Assembly (NCBI GenBank): GCA_021545665.1 | Contig: JAJRTX010000139.1 | Coordinates: forward strand, 1-42,325 | Direction: 5' to 3' | Length of the DNA stretch: 42,325 bases | Origin: Zetaproteobacteria bacterium | GTDB lineage: Bacteria > Pseudomonadota > Zetaproteobacteria > Mariprofundales > Mariprofundaceae | Shown: positions 14,032 through 25,563 of the stretch, piece after piece | Position numbering within the stretch: position 1 is the stretch's first letter | Layout: the number at the start of each line of letters is the position of its first letter | Notes under the pieces: model-generated | Seen by the model: the letters and a program-made list of their open reading frames with translations, nothing else | Databases searched by the model: none | Told to the model about the DNA's origin: nothing | Position numbers and translations under genes: made by a program

Positions 14032-14166
14032 CCGGCTTTATCAAGAGCAGTGGAGGGTTACAGGCCCTGTGAGACTGCGGCAACCGGCCAGAGGGGATCG
14101 AAGATTCCTGCGGAGAATGGTGCCAATGCCTGCCCGACGGTGGAAACCTGAGGGAGCGATGATGGA
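14032..14166 (+). promoter_or_regulatory. SAM-I (S-box) riboswitch aptamer
   Basis: The leader has the conserved S-box landmarks in order: TTATCAAGAG (kink-turn side of P2), GGAGGG, CAGGCCCTGTGA, CTGCGGCAACC, GGTGCCAATGCCTGC, and a closing GAGCGATGATGG. Helix P1 pairs 14036-14042 with 14158-14164, and P2 pairs GCAG with CTGC around the AAGAG kink-turn. When bound to S-adenosylmethionine such aptamers normally favour the downstream terminator, so expression rises when SAM or methionine is scarce. It precedes a threonine synthase homologue rather than a usual met gene. The call rests on motif recognition; a covariance-model search was not possible. Confidence 0.9.
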
Positions 14167-14207
14167 CGGGTTGCTCGTTTGATGCACCATGGGTGCGCCA
14201 TTATGAC

Positions 14208-14236
14208 AACCTTCGCTTTCATCGCGGAGGTTTTTT
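14208..14236 (+). terminator. Intrinsic terminator forming the riboswitch expression platform
   Basis: AACCTTCGC at 14208-14216 pairs with GCGGAGGTT at 14224-14232 (one G-U pair) around a TTTCATC loop, and six T residues run to 14236. It lies 42 bases after the aptamer and 33 bases before the GTG start. This fits premature termination when SAM is bound. Confidence 0.85.
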
Positions 14237-14269
14237 GTTTCTGGATCTTGCTGTTGGGAGAGAAAACGC

Positions 14270-15508
14270 GTGAGTATTGTTCGAGCATTGAAGTGTCGTG
14301 AGTGTGGTCAGGAATATGCCATTGAGCCCACCCATGTCTGTGAGTTTTGTTTTGGCCCACTGGAAGTGGTTTATGATTATGATAAATTGCAAGGTAAATT
14401 TACCCGTGAACTGATTGAGTCGCGGCCACAGACTATGTGGCGTTATAAAGAACTGCTGCCGATTGACGGTGAACCGACGGTCGGTGTTCAAAATGGCTTT
14501 ACACCGCTGGTACGGGCAAACAACCTTGCCAAGGTGCTGGGTGTGTCCGAGTTGTATATCAAGAATGATTCGGTTTGTTATCCCACCCTGTCATTCAAGG
14601 ATCGCGTGGTTTCAGTTGCCTTGTCCAAAGCCGTTGAATTTGGCTTCACCACGGTAGCCTGTGCATCCACTGGCACTCTGGCCGGTTCAGTGGCGGCCAA
14701 TGCTGCTGCTGCGGGGCTCGAATCCTATGTCTTTATTCCGCACGATCTGGAACAGGGTAAAGTGATCGGTGCGGGCGTGTTTGGCACCAATATTATTGGC
14801 ATCAGGGGCGCTTATGACGATGTGAATCGCCTCTGTTCGGAAGTGGCCGGTAAATATGGCTGGGCCTTTGTCAATGTGAATGTGCGCCCGTTTTATGCCG
14901 AGGGTTCCAAGTCACTGGGTTATGAAATGATGGAACAGTTGGGCTGGCAGGCGCCGAAGCATGTGGTGGTGCCGATGGCTTCCGGTTCATTATGTACTAA
15001 AATAGACAAGTCGATTAAGGAATTCATTAAGCTGGGCCTGATTGAAGATAATGGCACGGCTGTTTATGGCGCCCAGGCCACTGGATGCTCGCCGATTACC
15101 AAATCGGTGAAAGATGGTACCGACCTGATTCATCCGGTGCGAGCCAACACCATTGCCAAATCACTGGCCATTGGCAATCCGGCCGATGGTTATTATGCCA
15201 ATCGGGTTATCAAGGAGTCCGGTGGTTGGTCTGAGGATGTGTCTGATCAGGAAGTAGTGGATGCCATGAAACTGCTGGCTGAAACAGAGGGTATTTTTGC
15301 TGAAACAGCAGGTGGCGTGACTTTGGGCTGTGCCAGGAAGATGATTGAGTCCGGCAAACTGCCGCGTGATGAATCGATTGTGCTGTGCATTACCGGCAAT
15401 GGCCTGAAGACAATGGAAGCGGTGACTGATGCCATTAATAAACCGCGCATTATTGAGGCGAGTTTGAAAGAATTTGACGCCCTGGCAGCAGCTGATGGCG
15501 TGAAGTAA
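14270..15508 (+). CDS. thrC: Threonine synthase homologue (PLP-dependent) with N-terminal zinc ribbon, under SAM riboswitch
   Basis: By family this enzyme converts O-phosphohomoserine to threonine using PLP. The 412-residue protein begins with a four-cysteine zinc ribbon (Cys9, Cys12, Cys24, Cys27). The PLP fold follows, with FTPLVRANNLA, the Schiff-base lysine Lys110 in PTLSFKDR, the phosphate-binding ASTGTLAGS loop, and FAETAGGVTLG. The start is GTG at 14270 with GGGAGA upstream at 8-base spacing. The leader is a SAM-I riboswitch plus terminator, and the next gene encodes a sulfur-carrier protein. Threonine synthases are not usually SAM-controlled. An alternative role is therefore beta/gamma-replacement on phosphohomoserine with carrier-bound sulfur to give homocysteine. 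That role is inference; threonine synthase remains the family-based call. Confidence 0.88.
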   Translation: MSIVRALKCRECGQEYAIEPTHVCEFCFGPLEVVYDYDKLQGKFTRELIESRPQTMWRYKELLPIDGEPTVGVQNGFTPLVRANNLAKVLGVSELYIKNDSVCYPTLSFKDRVVSVALSKAVEFGFTTVACASTGTLAGSVAANAAAAGLESYVFIPHDLEQGKVIGAGVFGTNIIGIRGAYDDVNRLCSEVAGKYGWAFVNVNVRPFYAEGSKSLGYEMMEQLGWQAPKHVVVPMASGSLCTKIDKSIKEFIKLGLIEDNGTAVYGAQATGCSPITKSVKDGTDLIHPVRANTIAKSLAIGNPADGYYANRVIKESGGWSEDVSDQEVVDAMKLLAETEGIFAETAGGVTLGCARKMIESGKLPRDESIVLCITGNGLKTMEAVTDAINKPRIIEASLKEFDALAAADGVK

Positions 15509-15590: not shown

Positions 15591-15869
15591 ATGAGTGTAA
15601 TTGTTCGTATTCCAACCCCGCTGCGCAAGCTGACCGGCGGTGCTGATGAAGTTGTTATTGGCGGCGACAATGTCGGCGAATTGATTGATAACCTGGAAGC
15701 GGCGCATGCCGGTCTGAAAGAGCGGCTGTGCGATGAAAATGGTGAGATTCGCCGTTTTGTCAATGTTTATGTCAATGATGAAGATGTGCGTTTTCTTGAT
15801 GGTCGCGCCACGGCGCTGAAAGATGGTGATGAAGTGTCCATCGTGCCGGCGATTGCAGGCGGCTGTTAG
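15591..15869 (+). CDS. MoaD/ThiS-family sulfur-carrier protein ending Gly-Gly-Cys
   Basis: This small beta-grasp protein of 92 residues carries sulfur as a C-terminal thiocarboxylate after activation by a ThiF/MoeB-type enzyme. It has the MoaD/CysO pattern ([72 protein letters not shown]). The usual end of a carrier is Gly-Gly, but here one extra Cys follows. Adenylation would need that Cys removed first, as for carriers processed by JAB-type proteases, and no such protease gene is seen in the window. It lies between the threonine synthase homologue and the NIL gene, resembling CysO of actinobacteria and HcyS of Wolinella in context. An AGGAGA ribosome site precedes the ATG. Confidence 0.9.
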
Positions 15870-16192: not shown

Positions 16193-16215
16193 TATGAAGT
16201 TAGAAGGAGATGAAT

Positions 16216-17148
<933 letters not shown>

Positions 17149-17321: not shown

Positions 17322-18143
17322 ATGATTGATTTCACAGAAGAACAGATTGAGCGCTATTCGCGGCATATTATTCTGCCGGAAGTGGGTGCTGAAGGGCAGT
17401 CAAAGCTGCTCGAATCCAAAGTGTTTATGATTGGAGCCGGCGGCTTGGGATCGCCAGTGGCCTATTATCTGGCTGCAGCTGGCGTTGGCACGATTGGCAT
17501 CGCCGATGCTGATGTGGTGGATTCATCCAATTTACAGCGCCAGATTATTCATAATCGGGATCGAATCGGTATGCCCAAGGTAGAGAGCGCGCGTGAGACC
17601 ATGCAGGCGCTTAATCCCGATGTGAAAGTGAATACATATAACTATTTCATCACCGAAGACAATGTACGTGAAATTTTCCGTGAGTATGATCTTATTATTG
17701 ACGGTTGCGATAATTTTCCGACCCGTTTTCTGGTCAATGATGCCTGCTATTTTGAAAAAAAGCCGCTGATTTCAGGGGCCATGTTTCGCTTTGAAGGGCA
17801 GGTAGCGACATTCAAACCGCATCAGCAGAAAGACGCGCCATGCTACCGCTGTCTCTATCCCGAACCGCCACCGGCAGGACTGGTGCCAAGCTGCTCCGAG
17901 GCGGGGATTCTGGGTGCTCTGGCTGGTGCGGTGGGCACGATTCAGGCAGTTGAAGCAGTCAAAGAGTTGCTTGGCATTGGTGATTCACTGGCTGGAAAGC
18001 TGATGGTGTTTGATGCCCTGCGCATGGAGTGGAAAAAGCTAAAATTGCGCAAGGATCCAGGTTGTCCGCTATGCGGCGAAAATCCAACTATCACGGGTCT
18101 GGTTACTTATGATCAGGCATGCGAACTAAAGTTCGGCAAATAG
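17322..18143 (+). CDS. MoeB/ThiF-type sulfur-carrier adenylyltransferase
   Basis: This E1-like enzyme adenylates the C-terminal glycine of a sulfur-carrier protein. The 273-residue protein has the ATP-binding IGAGGLGSPVAYYLAAAGVG loop (about 37-55), DSSNLQRQ, and the DGCDNFPTRFLVND segment. It has zinc cysteine pairs Cys174/Cys177 (CYRC) and the CPLC pair near the C-terminus, plus Cys191 in VPSCSEAG at the catalytic cysteine position. Its place in the operon implies that the carrier encoded at 15591-15869 is its substrate. A role in molybdopterin synthesis as MoeB cannot be excluded, but no moa/moe genes are near. GAGG lies 11 bases before the ATG, a weak ribosome site. Confidence 0.9.
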   Translation: MIDFTEEQIERYSRHIILPEVGAEGQSKLLESKVFMIGAGGLGSPVAYYLAAAGVGTIGIADADVVDSSNLQRQIIHNRDRIGMPKVESARETMQALNPDVKVNTYNYFITEDNVREIFREYDLIIDGCDNFPTRFLVNDACYFEKKPLISGAMFRFEGQVATFKPHQQKDAPCYRCLYPEPPPAGLVPSCSEAGILGALAGAVGTIQAVEAVKELLGIGDSLAGKLMVFDALRMEWKKLKLRKDPGCPLCGENPTITGLVTYDQACELKFGK

Positions 18144-18243: not shown

Positions 18244-20592
18244 ATGACAGAATATGATTTTGCACATACATCTGATGTCGATGAATTTGAAGCGGGGGTG
18301 AAGGCTTTTCTGGATGGCCGCATGTCCGAGGAGCGCTTTACGCCGTTTCGGCTTCAGATGGGCGTTTATGGACAACGGCAGGATGGGGTGCAGATGGTGC
18401 GCATCAAGCTTCCGGGTGGGATTGTCACCCCCGATCAGATGGATGTGATCGCCGATTGTGTGGAAAAATATACCGGGCAGTTACCGACCGATGGCACGCT
18501 GAGTGAGAACCCGGCAAAGCTGGCGCATGTGACTACCCGGCAGGATATTCAGACCAATTTTGTGGCGTTGAAAGATGCTGTGTCGTTTTTGCGCAGACTG
18601 GATGCGGCGGGACTGACCACGCGTGAGGCCTGTGGCAATACGGTGCGTAATGTTTCGGCCTGTTTTCTGGCCGGACGCTGCCCTGCCGAACATGCCGATG
18701 TCACGGTGCATGCGCGCAACTTCGCTGAATTCTATCTGCGCCATCCGCTGACGCAGCAGTTTCCGAGGAAATTCAAGGTCTCTTTTTCCGGTTGCGCTAC
18801 CGATTGCGCCCTTTCAAGCATGCACGATGTTGCTTTTATCGCCATGCAAAAAGATGGCAGGAAGGGTTTTCAGGTGTGGGCGGCCGGCGGCCTTTCAACC
18901 CAGCCGATGGGCGCCATTCTGCTTGAGGATTTTATTGATGAAGCGGAAACCCTGCTGGTTGGCGAGGCTCTGATGCGCATCCATTTCAAGTATAGCGAGC
19001 GCAAAGTTCGTTCCCGAGCACGCATGAAATATGTGGCGCAGAAGTTGGGTAAGGAAGGTTTTGTTGAGGAGTATCGCAAGCAGCGGGCGGTGATTAAAAC
19101 AACACATGCCAATGACGAAGCATATCCTCAGGCGAACTGGCGTACGCCGACAGCGGAACTGCCGCATTCGGATTCCGGTGTTGTTGATCAGCACAATGGC
19201 AAACATGCCATACTGATTAATCTGTTTCGTGGTGATTTAACCGCGTTGCAGTGCCGGGCCGTCGCCAGTGCGGCGCGCATAGTCGAGAGTGCCGAGCTGC
19301 GTGCAACCTGCGAACAGGGCATGGTTATTTTCGATGTGCCGGGAGAGCAGGTCAATGCTGTGCTGGCGATACTGAATGAGGCCGGTTTACAAACGGAATA
19401 TGCACGTGGCATTGCTGATATTGTTGCCTGTCCGGGTACCGAAACATGTCGTCTGGGCATCACTTCCAGTCGCGGTCTGGCTGAGGCTCTGCAACCGATG
19501 ATGGCTGAGCTGAAAAAAGACCGGACGCTGGCAGATCTGTCCATCAAGGCGTCTGGTTGCCAACATTCCTGCGCCCGCCACCATATTGCCGATCTCGGCT
19601 TTCACGGTCTGGCCAAGAAAATCAACAAGCAGGCCGTGCCACATTATCAGTTACATGTGGGCGGTTCCGGCAAGGCTGGCGAGAATTTGGCTTTTGCCAC
19701 CGACCCGATTCCCGCAATCAGAGCGCCGGAAGCAGGCATGACCATATTACATGCTTACAAGGATGGTCGCCAGACAGGTGAGAACGTGCATGACTGGGCG
19801 ACGCGTCTGGGTCAACAGGGTATCAATGCGATTTTAAAACCATTTGCGGGACAAGCAGGCGAAGTGGAAGGTTTGATCTATGACTGGAGTGAAAACGAGG
19901 CATTTAACACCAGAGGCAACAAGAAGGGCGAATGCGCCGGCGCGGTTCTATCGATGTCTGATGCGCTGTTTTCCGAGGCTGAATATGAGCTATTGATTGC
20001 GCGCGCTCATCTGGATGCGATGTTTTGGGCCGAGGCGCAGACGGCATTGCGCCGCTCCGTGCTTGCTTCTGCAAGGGCGTTTCTTGTGCCTTACGGCGAA
20101 GCACCCGAAGATGATGCTCAGGTCTTTGGCCTGCTAATGAGCAATGCCGGCGGCGATACTGAAGTGATGGGCGGCTTTAATGCTGTGCAAGCGGCAATGA
20201 TGAATATTGATCTGGCTGACCCGGCGGCGGGCGTCACGAAGCTGAAAGAGGCGCAGACTGACTGGCTGAAGTTGGCGGCCTTGCGTTTCGCAGCCGTGCC
20301 TGCTGATACGCAGAGCAATCAGGCTGAAGAAGCGGTGAGAGAAAGCGTTGCAGCAAGTGATATTGCCTTGCTGGATCTCTCCGGCGTGGCCTGCCCGATG
20401 AATTTTGTTAAAACCAAAATCAGGCTGACAACAATGCCAGTCGGATCTCTGCTGGATGTGATTCTCGATGACGGTGCGCCGATTGAGAATGTGCCGCTCT
20501 CACTCGAAGAACAGGGGCAGAAAGTACTTGAGAAAGAACGAATATCTGAAACCCAGTGGAAAATCCGGGTTGAGAAATTTTCTTCGACTTAG
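18244..20592 (+). CDS. Sulfite/nitrite reductase hemoprotein fused to a C-terminal TusA-like domain
   Basis: This siroheme-4Fe-4S reductase probably reduces sulfite to sulfide, 782 residues. The tandem reductase repeats fill about residues 30-560. The expected cluster and siroheme ligands are Cys396 and Cys402 (CPGTETCRLG) and Cys439 and Cys443 (SGCQHSCARHH). The half-domain signatures NTVRNVSAC and VSFSGCATDCALSS lie in the first half. About residues 560-690 form a helical, HEPN-like linker of unknown role. The C-terminal 75 residues are a TusA domain with the sulfur-relay cysteine Cys717 in SGVACPMNFVKTK. The fusion suggests that product sulfide or persulfide is handed to a TusA-type carrier. 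Sulfite rather than nitrite is favoured by the cysDN context. Confidence 0.9.
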   Translation: MTEYDFAHTSDVDEFEAGVKAFLDGRMSEERFTPFRLQMGVYGQRQDGVQMVRIKLPGGIVTPDQMDVIADCVEKYTGQLPTDGTLSENPAKLAHVTTRQDIQTNFVALKDAVSFLRRLDAAGLTTREACGNTVRNVSACFLAGRCPAEHADVTVHARNFAEFYLRHPLTQQFPRKFKVSFSGCATDCALSSMHDVAFIAMQKDGRKGFQVWAAGGLSTQPMGAILLEDFIDEAETLLVGEALMRIHFKYSERKVRSRARMKYVAQKLGKEGFVEEYRKQRAVIKTTHANDEAYPQANWRTPTAELPHSDSGVVDQHNGKHAILINLFRGDLTALQCRAVASAARIVESAELRATCEQGMVIFDVPGEQVNAVLAILNEAGLQTEYARGIADIVACPGTETCRLGITSSRGLAEALQPMMAELKKDRTLADLSIKASGCQHSCARHHIADLGFHGLAKKINKQAVPHYQLHVGGSGKAGENLAFATDPIPAIRAPEAGMTILHAYKDGRQTGENVHDWATRLGQQGINAILKPFAGQAGEVEGLIYDWSENEAFNTRGNKKGECAGAVLSMSDALFSEAEYELLIARAHLDAMFWAEAQTALRRSVLASARAFLVPYGEAPEDDAQVFGLLMSNAGGDTEVMGGFNAVQAAMMNIDLADPAAGVTKLKEAQTDWLKLAALRFAAVPADTQSNQAEEAVRESVAASDIALLDLSGVACPMNFVKTKIRLTTMPVGSLLDVILDDGAPIENVPLSLEEQGQKVLEKERISETQWKIRVEKFSST

Positions 20593-20595
20593 CTG

Positions 20596-23241
20596 ATGAA
20601 CGCCAGTACTGATTTGCATCCGTTTGCCAATCCGGGACGCACCAAGTTGTCTCTGGTTAGTCGTGGTGTGGCCTTGCCGGATGGGTTGCAGCATGCATCC
20701 CGGTGGATATCGCAGGCCAATGCCATTGAGACTGTGCTGGACATCAAATTACCAACCGGACAATGGTGCACTGTGCCGGTCGGACAGCCGTATACCGAGA
20801 AAAGCAGTTTTTCTCTTGAACAGAAGGGCGACAAAGCCCTGTTGCATTGCGGCGGCGAAGTTGCGGAAGTTACGTTGCTTCAGGCTCCTGCATTCTATCA
20901 GAAAACAACACGCAGCGGCGCCCGCATGGGTAGCTTTTCCGCCTTGCATGATCGACTGCTGATCCTGCATCCGTTTCTGGGCTGCGGTTTTTTTAATTTG
21001 CCGGAAAATGCCTGTCAGTATTGCCAGTATGATTCGATGTTGAATCAGGCGGAACCGCCATTGCGCGAGCCGCTGGAACTGGTTGAGACAGTTCGTGCAG
21101 CTCTGGCCGAACGCGAAGTGGACACGGTTTATTTGTATAATGGTTATTCACCTTCGGATGATGTGGGCCTGAGGCAGCTGGTCGCAGTGATCGCACTGTT
21201 GCGCAAACATCTGGGGCATCGCCAAATTGCGCTGGAGACAGTCGCACCTATAGATGTGCAGGTGCTTGATGAGTTATATGAAGCAGGGCTGGATGTGTTT
21301 GTCTGCAATCTTGAGATCAATGATGTCGACAGGTTTGCACAAGTATGTCCGGGCAAACAGCAGGCTGGAGGGCAGGATGCAATTTACAGGACACTGCGGC
21401 ATGCACGTTCAGTGTTTCGTGCCGGAGCTGTAGTCAGCCATCTGATTGTGGGACTGGAACCATTACAATCTACGCTTGATGGTATGAAAAAGCTGATTGA
21501 ACAGGGTATTATTCCTATGTTGTTGCCATTTCGACCATTGCCGGGCACGCCATTAAGCAGTAATCAGTTGGCCAGCCTGGATGATGTAGAACAGGCTCTG
21601 CTTGTACAGTATGAGCTGTTGGAAAATTCCGGCATGCCAACGCATCGATTGAGAGATATGGGGCGTGTATTAACGCCAATGGAAAGTGGCTTGTTGATTG
21701 GTAAGGACCCTTATCTGCAAGAGCAGGTGGTAACTTCCAGCATGGGGCGTCACATGTCCGGCTGGCTGGATAGTCTTCGACGTTATTTGCGTTCTAACGG
21801 CAAGGTGGACGATAGCTATCAGCAATCAGGGCACAGGCCAATGCACTGGTTATTAGCTAGAGAGGGGGTACCCTATTTAGCCCTGATTGTGCTCTCTGCT
21901 CTGGCTCTTTGGGCCGGGACGCAGGATGTTCCGGCCGGTTTAACCGGGAGTGGCTGGCATGCGCTGCTAATTTTTCTGTTTTGTCTTGCCCTGTGGATCA
22001 GTGCCTTGATTCCGTTGGCGGCAACTTCCTTGTTGGGGCTGGCGTTGTTGCCATTGACAGGCGTATTGCCGGCGGCTGATGCTTATAGCATGTTCGGTTC
22101 ATCCGCCGTATTTTTTATCCTCGGCGCATTCATGCTTGCCGCAGGCGCACGGGTCACAGGGCTGTCCGAGCATCTGGCGCTGAGCTTGATTGAACGCGTT
22201 GGACTGGGGCCGAAGCGGTTGTTGCTGGCGCTGCTGTTTTTGCCTGCCGTGATGGCGTTTGTGATGCCGGAGCATGCCGTGGCGGCAGTATTTTTGCCTA
22301 TAACATGGGACATTGTTCGCAGTCTGGATCTGAAAATGGGTGATCGCTATGCGCAGTCGCTGTTTTTTGCCGTGGCCTGGGGAGCGATTATCGGCGGTGT
22401 TATGACATTGCTTGGTGGGGCGCGTGGCCCATTGGCACTGGGCATGGTGCAGGAGATTTCCGGCCAGTCATTCACATTTATGGACTGGACGCTTGCTGCA
22501 TCACCACTGGTGCTGCTGATGCTTCTGGCGGCCATGATGGTGTTGCTTGTGATCACGCCTTTTGATGGCGTGAATGTTGGCAGGGCGCGCAGATGTGTGG
22601 AGCAGCGTCAGCTGGAGCTGGGAAACCTGGAACTGCGCGGCTGGCTGATGGGCATATTGCTTCTGGTCACTGTTGCAGCCTGGATGTTTGGCGGCCATGC
22701 TGCTTCACTGGCTGCGATCGCATTACTCAGCGTAGCGGCCATGTTCGCTTTGCGGCTGGTGAGTTGGGATGAAATCGAGCGTCATGTTAGCTGGAGCGTA
22801 GTGCTGATGTATGGCGGCGCTATTGCTGTGGGTTCGGCGTTAAGCGTCAGCGGAGCCGGGGCCTGGCTGGCGGCGCAGTTTTTCCCTGAAGGGTTGGTTG
22901 GCTTCGCACTGATTATTGTGCTGACTATTGCTACCCTGCTGCTGACTGAAGGGGTGAGCAATGCAGCGGCAGTGGCTATATTGTTGCCTGTTGCGATTCC
23001 TGTGGGCATTGCCGCCGGCATTGATCCGCTGACCATTGCTCTGGCTGTGGGCATTATTGCAGGATTTGCATTTATGTTGCCGATGGGAACGCCGCCCAAT
23101 GCCATGATTTACGGCACAGGGTTTGTTCAGCGACTGGCCATGCTACGTTTTGGTGGCATTCTTTCCCTGACATCGCTGGCATTATTTATTGTTATTGCAT
23201 GGGTCTGGTGGCCTATGCTTGATTTTGGCGTTGGTGGCTGA
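20596..23241 (+). CDS. Radical SAM domain fused to SLC13 (DASS) family anion permease
   Basis: A single uninterrupted frame of 881 codons encodes two modules. Residues 1 to about 410 are a cytoplasmic radical SAM-type domain with a CX9CX2C cluster motif (Cys130, Cys140, Cys143), an upstream AFYQKTTRSGARMGSF segment, and barrel-like VYLYNGYSPSDD, IALETVAPIDVQVLDEL and VVSHLIVGLEPLQ. It recalls the MSMEG_0568 radical SAM family from memory. Residues from about 422 to 881 are a membrane transporter of about 11-12 helices. The two SLC13 hairpin signatures are MPEHAVAAVFLPI, and TEGVSNAAAVAILLPVAI with MGTPPNAMIYGTG. It starts 3 bases after the sulfite reductase and 25 bases before cysD, so sulfate is the likely cargo. 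What the radical SAM part does is unknown. Confidence 0.87.
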   Translation: MNASTDLHPFANPGRTKLSLVSRGVALPDGLQHASRWISQANAIETVLDIKLPTGQWCTVPVGQPYTEKSSFSLEQKGDKALLHCGGEVAEVTLLQAPAFYQKTTRSGARMGSFSALHDRLLILHPFLGCGFFNLPENACQYCQYDSMLNQAEPPLREPLELVETVRAALAEREVDTVYLYNGYSPSDDVGLRQLVAVIALLRKHLGHRQIALETVAPIDVQVLDELYEAGLDVFVCNLEINDVDRFAQVCPGKQQAGGQDAIYRTLRHARSVFRAGAVVSHLIVGLEPLQSTLDGMKKLIEQGIIPMLLPFRPLPGTPLSSNQLASLDDVEQALLVQYELLENSGMPTHRLRDMGRVLTPMESGLLIGKDPYLQEQVVTSSMGRHMSGWLDSLRRYLRSNGKVDDSYQQSGHRPMHWLLAREGVPYLALIVLSALALWAGTQDVPAGLTGSGWHALLIFLFCLALWISALIPLAATSLLGLALLPLTGVLPAADAYSMFGSSAVFFILGAFMLAAGARVTGLSEHLALSLIERVGLGPKRLLLALLFLPAVMAFVMPEHAVAAVFLPITWDIVRSLDLKMGDRYAQSLFFAVAWGAIIGGVMTLLGGARGPLALGMVQEISGQSFTFMDWTLAASPLVLLMLLAAMMVLLVITPFDGVNVGRARRCVEQRQLELGNLELRGWLMGILLLVTVAAWMFGGHAASLAAIALLSVAAMFALRLVSWDEIERHVSWSVVLMYGGAIAVGSALSVSGAGAWLAAQFFPEGLVGFALIIVLTIATLLLTEGVSNAAAVAILLPVAIPVGIAAGIDPLTIALAVGIIAGFAFMLPMGTPPNAMIYGTGFVQRLAMLRFGGILSLTSLALFIVIAWVWWPMLDFGVGG

Positions 23242-24279: not shown

Positions 24280-25563
24280 ATGACTGAATTGAATATTAAA
24301 CTGGCTGAAGAAATCGAGTTGTTGCGGCTGGTGACAGTGGGTAGTGTGGATGATGGTAAATCAACCCTGATTGGTCGTCTGCTGGTTGACACCAAGGGTG
24401 CGTTCGAGGATCAGTTGCTGGCCGTGCGCAAAAAGAAGGGGCAGGAGCATCATATTGCATCAGCCGCCGAGATTGATCTGGCCATGTTGACCGACGGCCT
24501 GTCCGCCGAGCGTGAACAGGGCATCACCATTGATGTGGCCTATCGCTATTTCGCTACGCCGAAGCGCAAGTTCATTATGGCTGATTGTCCGGGTCATGAG
24601 CAGTACACCCGCAATATGGTGACTGGCGCATCGACTGCCAATGCTGCCATCATATTGATTGATGCGCGCAACGGCGTCATGCCGCAAACCAGGCGGCATA
24701 CCCATATTCTTGGGCTGCTCGGCATTCCGCATCTGATTGTGGCGGTGAACAAGATGGATCTGGTCGGTCATGATCAGGCTGTTTATGAGCAGATTCGTGA
24801 AGAAATGAATGCCTACTGCGCCAAACAGGGCGTGAAGGATCTGATCTGTCTGCCGATGTCAGCACTCGATGGCGATATGGTGGCTGTGCGCGGTGATAAT
24901 ATGAACTGGTATGAAGGCGAGACTCTGTTAGAGACACTGGAAAGCTTGTCCGTTCTGGATGATATTGATAACAGCCCGTTCCGTTTCCCTGTACAGCTGG
25001 TCAACCGTCCACAAACCGCCGAGTTGCCGGATTATCGTGGTTTTATGGGTACGATTGCTTCGGGTACGGTGAGAGTTGGTGATGAAGTGGTAGCCGTACC
25101 GGGCGGCAATATCTCAACTGTAAAAGAGATTGTCACTTTCGATGGTAACCTTGACGAAGCATTTGCGCCGCAGAGCGTGACCCTGACCTTGAATGATGAG
25201 ATCGATGTCTCGCGCGGTGATATGCTCACTCTGCTCGGTGAGAAGGCATCTGACAGCAAAGAGCTGACGGCGAATGTTTGCTTGATTGGCGATGAAACGC
25301 TGACTAATCGTAATAAATATATCATAAAACACACCACCAATTCGGTAAAAGCGATGGTCACCAGCATCGATTTTCGTCGTAATATTTACAATCTGGATAA
25401 GGAAGAAGCGGATGAGCTGACCATGAATGAAATTGGTCAGATTACCTTCAAACTGCAAAAGCCGCTGCATTATGATTCCTATGCAGACAATCGTTCCACC
25501 GGCAGCTTTATTCTGATCGATACTTTCACCAACAACACTGTTGGTGCCGGGATGATTGTGTAA
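24280..25563 (+). CDS. cysN: Sulfate adenylyltransferase subunit 1 (GTPase)
   Basis: CysN couples GTP hydrolysis to APS synthesis by CysD. The 427-residue protein has G1 GSVDDGKSTLIGRLL, switch I EREQGITIDVAYRYF, G3 DCPGHEQYTRNM, and G4 NKMDLVG, followed by two beta-barrel domains (PVQLVNRPQ onward). There is no fused CysC kinase domain at the C-terminus. No cysC or cysH is in the window, so the next step (APS to sulfite) must be encoded elsewhere. It is the last gene of the cluster, converging with the yhdP-like gene. No strong terminator is evident in the 67-base gap. Confidence 0.96.
   Translation: MTELNIKLAEEIELLRLVTVGSVDDGKSTLIGRLLVDTKGAFEDQLLAVRKKKGQEHHIASAAEIDLAMLTDGLSAEREQGITIDVAYRYFATPKRKFIMADCPGHEQYTRNMVTGASTANAAIILIDARNGVMPQTRRHTHILGLLGIPHLIVAVNKMDLVGHDQAVYEQIREEMNAYCAKQGVKDLICLPMSALDGDMVAVRGDNMNWYEGETLLETLESLSVLDDIDNSPFRFPVQLVNRPQTAELPDYRGFMGTIASGTVRVGDEVVAVPGGNISTVKEIVTFDGNLDEAFAPQSVTLTLNDEIDVSRGDMLTLLGEKASDSKELTANVCLIGDETLTNRNKYIIKHTTNSVKAMVTSIDFRRNIYNLDKEEADELTMNEIGQITFKLQKPLHYDSYADNRSTGSFILIDTFTNNTVGAGMIV

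What the first reader, a model, noticed from the sequence alone, without database searches (positions are those of the whole stretch)
20596..23241. Radical SAM domain fused in frame to an SLC13 anion transporter inside a sulfate assimilation operon
One 881-codon frame joins a CX9CX2C radical SAM-like domain to a full-length DASS permease with both Pro/Asn hairpin signatures. I know of no described function for such a fusion. Position between sulfite reductase and cysD makes sulfate or another sulfur oxyanion or organosulfur compound the likely cargo. The soluble domain might modify the imported compound or sense SAM and gate transport.
Basis: partly seen in the sequence, partly recalled or inferred. 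Interest (0 to 1): 0.8.

Follow-up and report, generated by a model that had tools for sequence, protein, structure and literature searches.

The report
Radical-SAM protein fused to sulfate permease
Marine iron-oxidising bacteria of one class carry, among their sulfur-uptake genes, a membrane importer (most likely for sulfate) joined to a radical-chemistry enzyme domain; the pairing is real and conserved, but what the enzyme half does is unknown.

Summary
One 881-codon frame (20596-23241, +) joins a radical SAM barrel (Cys130-x9-Cys140-x2-Cys143; NCBIfam NF045502) to a full DASS/SLC13 permease, three bases after a sulfite reductase-TusA gene and 25 before cysD. One detail is wrong: the first permease hairpin carries Pro-Glu-His, not the Asn motif.

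The pair is general in Zetaproteobacteria: of 78 genomes, 65 have a match crossing the junction, 7 two adjacent genes, 2 are fragmentary, 4 lack it. With unfused permeases as outgroup, split forms branch first, so neighbouring genes probably fused. The three cysteines are invariant in 176 of 176 rows.

New here: a SAM-I riboswitch with a terminator-like hairpin heads the gene row; it recurs in 8 of 8 relatives scanned. A Fusobacteria permease with the same Glu-His and Arg signature precedes cysC, apr and cysD genes, without radical SAM; this points to sulfate as cargo.

Best reading: a sulfate importer coupled to a radical SAM enzyme of unknown substrate. A SAM-sensing gate is the novel reading not excluded. 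My paper searches found no description of the fusion.

The parts
20596..21795 (+). Radical SAM half of the fusion (residues about 1-400)
20983..21024 (+). Cys130-x9-Cys140-x2-Cys143, the expected [4Fe-4S] loop between the first strand and first helix of the barrel
   Evidence: invariant in 176 of 176 rows with letters there; loop 125-158 lies between strand 121-124 and helix 159-172
21304..21348 (+). Cys237 and Cys251, two further invariant cysteines of the zetaproteobacterial family (C237-N-L-E, C251-P-G-K)
   Evidence: 177 of 177 rows; not conserved in the distant stand-alone relatives shown
21796..21840 (+). Linker between the halves; in split relatives the first gene ends and the second starts around here
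21841..23220 (+). DASS/SLC13 permease half (residues about 416-875)
   Evidence: TIGR00785 250.9 bits, PF00939 208.8; Foldseek best NaCT, NaDC3, NaS1, VcINDY
22267..22275 (+). P558-E559-H560 in hairpin HPin, in place of Ser-Asn-Thr
   Evidence: P, E and H in 51 of 51 zetaproteobacterial rows; E and H in 29 of 29 unfused relatives aligned; aligned with VcINDY
22423..22425 (+). R610 in loop L5 (GGARGPLA), next to the expected substrate site
   Evidence: 52 of 52 zetaproteobacterial rows and 29 of 29 unfused relatives
22957..22962 (+). S788-N789 in hairpin HPout (TEGVSNAAA), the intact second signature
   Evidence: 51 of 51 zetaproteobacterial rows; S 29 of 29 and N 28 of 29 in unfused relatives
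14035..14165 (+). SAM-I (S-box) riboswitch at the head of the gene row
   Evidence: RF00162 59.1 bits, gathering 44.4, full model 1-108; same place in 8 of 8 relatives scanned
14208..14232 (+). Terminator-like hairpin followed by a T run, between riboswitch and first gene; a possible expression platform
   Evidence: consensus match only
14270..15508 (+). Threonine synthase-like PLP protein, first gene of the row
   Evidence: TIGR00260 256.2 bits, cut-off 167.1
15591..15869 (+). ThiS/MoaD-like small sulfur carrier
   Evidence: PF02597 64.6, NF041918 63.9 bits
15869..16108 (+). 79-residue NIL-domain protein
   Evidence: PF09383 54.2 bits, cut-off 24
16210..17148 (+). Cysteine synthase (CysK/CysM)
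   Evidence: TIGR01139 459.1 bits, cut-off 350.95
17322..18143 (+). MoeB/ThiF-type adenylyltransferase
   Evidence: PF00899 280.9; NF004281 316, cut-off 266
18244..20592 (+). Siroheme sulfite/nitrite reductase with C-terminal TusA
   Evidence: PF01077, PF03460, PF01206
23267..24190 (+). cysD, ATP sulfurylase small subunit
   Evidence: TIGR02039 438.4 bits, cut-off 396.6
24280..25563 (+). cysN, ATP sulfurylase GTPase subunit
   Evidence: TIGR02034 541.5 bits, cut-off 336.1

Best explanation
A two-module inner-membrane protein of Zetaproteobacteria. The C-terminal DASS permease imports sulfate for the sulfur assimilation genes around it, by the elevator mechanism of SLC13 proteins, with Glu559, His560 and Arg610 in place of one Na+/substrate half-site. 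The N-terminal module, which should face the cytoplasm (DASS orientation recalled), is an intact radical SAM enzyme: C130, C140 and C143 hold a [4Fe-4S] cluster that cleaves SAM, and the 5'-deoxyadenosyl radical acts on a small organic metabolite bound at the top of the barrel near E214, C237, N238, E240, K254 and R313. Shown: the fusion, its conservation, the predicted fold, the gene row and the riboswitch match. Inferred: sulfate as cargo, catalysis, the residues named as pocket, and that the two modules work in one pathway. The substrate is unknown. I put sulfate as cargo at about 0.75 and 'enzyme rather than sensor' at about 0.6.
For: Domain assignments above cut-off. Motif cysteines invariant in 176/176 rows. 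Barrel at pLDDT 89.2, pTM 0.88; best solved neighbours LIAS/LipA, HydE, HydG, PylB, BioB, which are enzymes. Gene order ThrS-ThiS-CysK/M-MoeB-Sir/TusA-rSAM-DASS-(CysH)-CysD-CysN in the loci of the class that reach far enough. The two halves are fused (65) or adjacent (7) in the 72 genomes where the junction can be seen, while cysH is not between permease and cysD and lies on another contig in, for example, G001 and G003. Sulfate as cargo: Ilyobacter polytropus, another phylum, has an unfused permease with the same MPEHAVAA and GGAR motifs directly before genes annotated cysC, APS reductase alpha subunit, ferredoxin and cysD; CysT over its cut-off in 0 of 78 genomes.
Against: SulP-family genes pass their cut-off in 70 of 78 and EI24 (CysZ-type) genes in 64 of 78 genomes, so sulfate has other possible doors; CysT-like ABC permeases under the cut-off match in 74 of 78. 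Sulfate itself cannot be a radical SAM substrate, so this reading does not explain why the two are joined. The second-strand motif is YNG, where several relatives have GGG or TTG. Nothing here shows cluster binding or catalysis. The Ilyobacter context is one independent case.
Confidence: 0.48

Rival explanations
1. The radical SAM module is a SAM- or redox-responsive gate. SAM, end product of the pathway, binds the [4Fe-4S] module and slows sulfate uptake, a second SAM feedback next to the riboswitch that controls the genes.
For: SAM-I riboswitch at the head of the row in the window and in 8 of 8 relatives scanned. Tight linkage: fused or adjacent in the 72 genomes where the junction can be seen. 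Regulatory domains on sulfate permeases exist (SulP-STAS, recalled).
Against: I know of no radical SAM protein used as a sensor (recalled). The cluster motif and barrel are kept. Rows that branch deepest in the permease tree are separate proteins, so the covalent link is not essential.
Confidence: 0.22
2. The permease carries an organosulfur anion such as a sulfonate, and the radical SAM module cuts it to release sulfite for the sulfite reductase next door.
For: The sulfite reductase gene ends three bases before the fusion. HydE-like and LipA-like folds handle C-S chemistry (folds; chemistry recalled). Other sulfate doors exist in most genomes of the class.
Against: The same permease signature occurs with cysC-apr-cysD genes and no annotated radical SAM gene nearby in Ilyobacter. 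ATP sulfurylase genes follow directly, which a sulfonate route would not need. L016 has 1.2 kb between sulfite reductase and radical SAM.
Confidence: 0.15
3. The radical SAM enzyme works in the sulfur pathway but has no functional link with the permease; neighbouring co-translated genes fused by accident and the fusion is tolerated.
For: In six of the seven split genomes the first stop and the second start overlap or lie two bases apart, and split forms branch first in the permease tree.
Against: The pair was not seen apart where the junction can be seen, whereas cysH is outside the row in G001, G003 and others. The fusion persists in 65 of 78 genomes.
Confidence: 0.15

Closest known systems
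MSMEG_0568-family radical SAM protein of the Nit1C nitrilase cluster (TIGR04043; COG2516-like)
   Same: Same NF045502 domain and the same CX9CX2C spacing; shared N-x-E or H-x-E and PGK motifs
   Different: The window protein scores 94.7 for TIGR04043 against a cut-off of 303.7; these kin are stand-alone and lack conserved C237 and C251
DASS/SLC13 transporters (VcINDY, NaCT, NaS1)
   Same: Full-length fold and TIGR00785 match; second hairpin SN kept
   Different: First hairpin PEH instead of SNT, Arg in loop L5, N-terminal radical SAM module
Unfused DASS permease of Ilyobacter polytropus plasmid pILYOP02
   Same: MPEHAVAA, GGAR and SN motifs; sulfate activation genes downstream
   Different: No radical SAM gene among the 20 annotated features of the 17.4 kb shown; APS reductase annotated as an alpha subunit with a ferredoxin
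Lipoyl synthase LipA/LIAS, HydE, PylB, BioB
   Different: 15-18% identity; no LipA, HydE, PylB or BioB model among the NCBIfam matches of the window protein; no CX3CX2C
SulP permeases with STAS, rhodanese or carbonic anhydrase domains (recalled, not fetched)
   Same: Anion permease with an attached soluble domain
   Different: Unrelated permease family and unrelated soluble domains

Membership tests
NF045502 variant radical SAM domain | Score above curated cut-off | tested here: met
   166.4 bits against 125
Radical SAM superfamily | Three-cysteine cluster motif CX3CX2C | tested here: not met
   Spacing is CX9CX2C; the same spacing occurs in MSMEG_0568 proteins and one relative, L107, has CX3CX2C, so it is a spacing variant
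Radical SAM superfamily | Barrel core with the cysteines in the first strand-helix loop | tested here: met
Radical SAM superfamily | Binds [4Fe-4S] and cleaves SAM | not testable with these tools
MSMEG_0568 family (TIGR04043) | Score above curated cut-off | tested here: not met
   94.7 bits against 303.7
DASS family (TIGR00785) | Score above curated cut-off and SLC13 fold | tested here: met
   250.9 against 198.6; Foldseek NaCT, NaDC3, NaS1, VcINDY
DASS family | Two Ser-Asn-Thr type hairpin motifs | tested here: not met
   HPout keeps SN, HPin is PEH
Sulfate transporter | Moves sulfate | not testable with these tools
   Context only
Lipoyl synthase / biotin synthase | Equivalog model above cut-off | tested here: not met
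   No LipA or BioB model among the four NCBIfam matches at E 0.001
SAM-I riboswitch RF00162 (head of the row) | Score above gathering cut-off | tested here: met
   59.1 against 44.4; 8 of 8 relatives scanned

The most novel reading that the evidence does not exclude
The radical SAM barrel works as a SAM-sensing gate on the sulfate importer. SAM would then set both the making of the sulfur assimilation genes, through the S-box riboswitch, and the activity of the importer, through the fused barrel: a radical SAM fold used as an allosteric sensor.
Probability: 0.2. Interest if true: 0.85.

Novelty: new variant of a known kind. Interest (0 to 1): 0.56.

Why it matters
Both halves belong to known families, but I found no description of the pairing. 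It occurs in most genomes of a whole class of bacteria, so it is not a curiosity of one strain. It gives a radical SAM subfamily without known function a concrete pathway (sulfate assimilation under a SAM riboswitch) and a partner, so its substrate can be looked for among few metabolites. If the barrel gates uptake, it would be a new use of the fold.

Tried and rejected
Misassembly or a chance open frame: rejected, 119 of 120 listed homologues have the same architecture. A decayed radical SAM domain: rejected, three motif cysteines in 176/176 rows. Membership in the MSMEG_0568 family or, by absence of a match, LipA or BioB: rejected by NCBIfam. PPR repeat proteins in the PDB profile search: taken as repeat artefacts. 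DASS as the only sulfate door: not tenable, SulP-type genes in 70 of 78 and EI24-type in 64 of 78 genomes. A stop at the junction hidden in the 65 fused genomes: in the six I re-read, no stop lies at the junction (G016 has one at aligned residue 45, G076 one at 880, G034 changes frame inside the permease near residue 651-670; G026, G027 and G074 show none). For the other 59 I rely on the table, which reports none inside the match.

The radical SAM tree could not be rooted, outgroup branches being up to 10 changes per column; it neither supports nor contradicts the split-first reading of the permease tree. In that permease tree rows were called split or fused by protein length; the fused rows need 3 label changes, at least 2 forced by starred branches, so repeated fusion and later splitting cannot be told apart; one split row (P0206) lies inside a fused clade. 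The gene neighbourhoods of the 43-48% identical unfused permeases (for example of Deltaproteobacteria and Methanohalobium) could not be read, because no DNA for them was within reach. In 398 Pseudomonadota genomes, 70 had a match at E 1e-70 to such a permease, and all 70 places belong to genomes that also appear in the class search. The relative placement of the two domains in the full model is not trusted (pTM 0.70). One partial fused protein is labelled Gammaproteobacteria (P0187, longest contig 1159 bases) and was not followed up.

Rows left out before counts: one search used the window protein and 176 of the 196 proteins numbered (P0177-P0196, fragments and distant kin, left out; itself listed 120 of 186). 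One search used 29 of the 39 unfused permeases P0273-P0311. One search scanned 8 of the loci that hold the first gene. One search looked at 16 loci; two gave no gene call and two were called on the wrong strand.

Paper searches for the fusion, the motif, the pathway in these bacteria or the kin: and for the riboswitch with Mariprofundus (listings; no title or abstract start shown describes the fusion). One search was for SLC13A1. Of PMC1199592, PMC10980263, PMC7553777 and PMC4643136 I saw passages only.

Full report
The thing itself. The 881-codon frame at 20596-23241 is present exactly as described. Residues 65-322 match the NCBIfam domain NF045502 'variant_rSAM' at 166.4 bits (cut-off 125) and PF04055 at 32.6 (cut-off 29.5); residues 445-872 match TIGR00785 'dass' at 250.9 (cut-off 198.6) and PF00939 at 208.8. 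The cysteines are C130, C140 and C143, a CX9CX2C motif. The frame starts three bases after the stop of a sulfite reductase-TusA gene and ends 25 bases before cysD.

Conservation. A search of 5.8 billion proteins scored 7996 candidates and found 186; of the 120 listed, 119 are 871-896 aa long and align over at least 96% of the query. Names, where given in that list, are Mariprofundus, Ghiorsea, other Zetaproteobacteria, or just Proteobacteria (P0040). In 78 genomes of the class, 75 have some match at E 0.001, one of them (G038) only to a weak permease paralogue. By my count of that table, 65 of 78 have a match that crosses the junction (62 of these run from the radical SAM start well into the permease), 7 have two adjacent matches that meet at the junction (G045, G046, G047, G067, G069, G075, G077), 2 are cut by contig ends or scattered (G013, G068), and 4 have none (G010, G035, G036, G038). 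Two of those four also lack a long sulfite reductase match (G035, G038) and two have it cut short (G010, G036). Rows with a stop or a break were re-read: no stop lies at the junction. G016 has a stop at aligned residue 45 of the radical SAM half, and G034 changes frame inside the permease; whether these are sequencing errors I cannot tell.

Split forms. In six of the seven split genomes the second gene starts where the first stops: stop and start overlap or lie two bases apart. In G046 about 300 bases with inverted ends lie between them. With nine unfused permeases as outgroup (branch 100/100), the permease tree puts two groups of four split rows at the base of the class, beside one branch that holds all 31 fused and 21 other split rows; the fused rows need 3 label changes, at least 2 forced by starred branches. 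Rows were called split by protein length; adjacency to the radical SAM gene was read in the seven genomes only. So adjacent genes most likely came first and fused later, once or more than once. The radical SAM tree could not be rooted.

Nearest radical SAM relatives. NF045502 passes its cut-off in 86 of 398 Pseudomonadota genomes sampled, 15 of them outside the class by my count. Of 16 loci outside the class that I looked at, 12 gave a usable gene; 11 of these 12 have CX9CX2C, and 7 have directly upstream a protein whose start looks nitrilase-like by eye, as in the Nit1C cluster. Two tested score 604 and 569 bits for TIGR04043, MSMEG_0568 family. Podar et al. 2005 (PMC1199592, passages) place the Nit1C radical SAM proteins nearest to biotin synthase-related COG2516 proteins. 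The window protein scores only 94.7 for TIGR04043 (cut-off 303.7), so it is a cousin and not a member. One relative, L107, has the canonical CX3CX2C.

The permease half. In the first hairpin the zetaproteobacterial rows have P-E-H in 51 of 51 and the unfused relatives E-H in 29 of 29; R610 in loop L5 is kept in 52 of 52 and 29 of 29; the second hairpin keeps S-N (51 of 51; S 29 of 29, N 28 of 29). In human NaS1 the equivalent Ser and Thr hold sulfate and the Asn holds Na1 (PMC10980263, passages; position match from the VcINDY alignment). In the exchanger LaINDY an Arg salt-bridged to a Glu takes the Na1 place (PMC7553777, passages). By analogy, Glu559 and Arg610 may replace Na1 here, so Na+ coupling at that site is doubtful; this is inference.

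Cargo. The gene row ThrS-ThiS-CysK/M-MoeB-Sir/TusA-rSAM-DASS-CysD-CysN recurs in the loci of the class that reach far enough; in many a gene fits between permease and cysD. In the five such gaps I translated it looks like an APS/PAPS reductase, and the one from L089 was confirmed by Pfam PF01507. In the closest relatives of the window the reductase lies on another contig (G001, G003). An independent case is the plasmid of Ilyobacter polytropus (Fusobacteriota): its permease is 37% identical to P0275, has MPEHAVAA, GGAR and SNS, and is followed by genes annotated cysC, APS reductase alpha subunit, ferredoxin and cysD, with no radical SAM gene among the 20 annotated features of the 17.4 kb shown. 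CysT passes its cut-off in 0 of 78 genomes of the class, with weaker ABC permease matches in 74, but SulP-type genes pass in 70 of 78 and EI24-type in 64 of 78. Sulfate is therefore the likeliest cargo, not a proven or exclusive one.

Control by SAM. A SAM-I riboswitch (RF00162, 59.1 bits, gathering 44.4) lies at 14035-14165, followed by a terminator-like hairpin with a T run at 14208-14232 and the first gene at 14270. In 8 of 8 relatives scanned, the same riboswitch lies upstream of the threonine synthase-like gene. Whether one transcript runs through to the fusion is not shown. The gap between ThiS and CysK/M is mostly filled by a NIL-domain gene.

How it most likely works. I commit to a sulfate importer coupled to a working radical SAM enzyme of the same sulfur pathway. 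The case for an enzyme rests on the intact motif, the fold and the kin; the case for coupling rests on the two halves being fused or adjacent in the 72 genomes where the junction can be seen, while cysH is outside the row in some. Since sulfate offers no C-H bond, the enzyme substrate would be another metabolite. The SAM-gate reading gains from the riboswitch but has no precedent known to me. An organosulfur cargo cut by the enzyme remains possible.

Novelty. Searches of 5.39 million open papers for the fusion, the motif, the kin or the pathway in these bacteria gave no description in the listings shown; subscription papers are not covered. Databases that name the protein call it, for example, 'DASS family sodium-coupled anion symporter'. 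The architecture is a new variant built from known families.

Noticed in passing
window 14035-14270: SAM-I riboswitch and terminator-like hairpin directly before a threonine synthase-like gene, heading a row with a ThiS-like carrier, a NIL-domain protein, cysteine synthase and MoeB; this looks like a sulfur-carrier route to homocysteine or cysteine in which the PLP protein may not be a plain threonine synthase.
   Followed up: partly
window 18244-20592: Sulfite/nitrite reductase fused to TusA; the best NCBIfam equivalog is far under its cut-off (215.1 of 523), so the exact reductase type is open. Matches at E 1e-40 in 72 of 78 genomes of the class.
   Followed up: partly
L018 12600-14120, L088 3000-4500: Some relatives have extra genes between the APS/PAPS reductase and cysD: one of about 175 residues without assignment here and a short TusA-like stretch.
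   Followed up: no
L086 about 1220-1490: In split genome G046 about 300 bases with inverted ends (TGTCCCATCC...GGATGGGACA) lie between the radical SAM gene and the permease gene, like a small mobile insert.
   Followed up: no
plasmid collection: 471 plasmid records hold a relative of the radical SAM half at E 1e-8; 369 are Klebsiella, and the Klebsiella rows among the 20 shown are annotated MSMEG_0568 family.
   Followed up: no
L107 7542-8621: A relative of the radical SAM half with the canonical CX3CX2C motif (GCGFSCQYC), which suggests that the longer spacing arose by an insert in the cluster loop.
   Followed up: no
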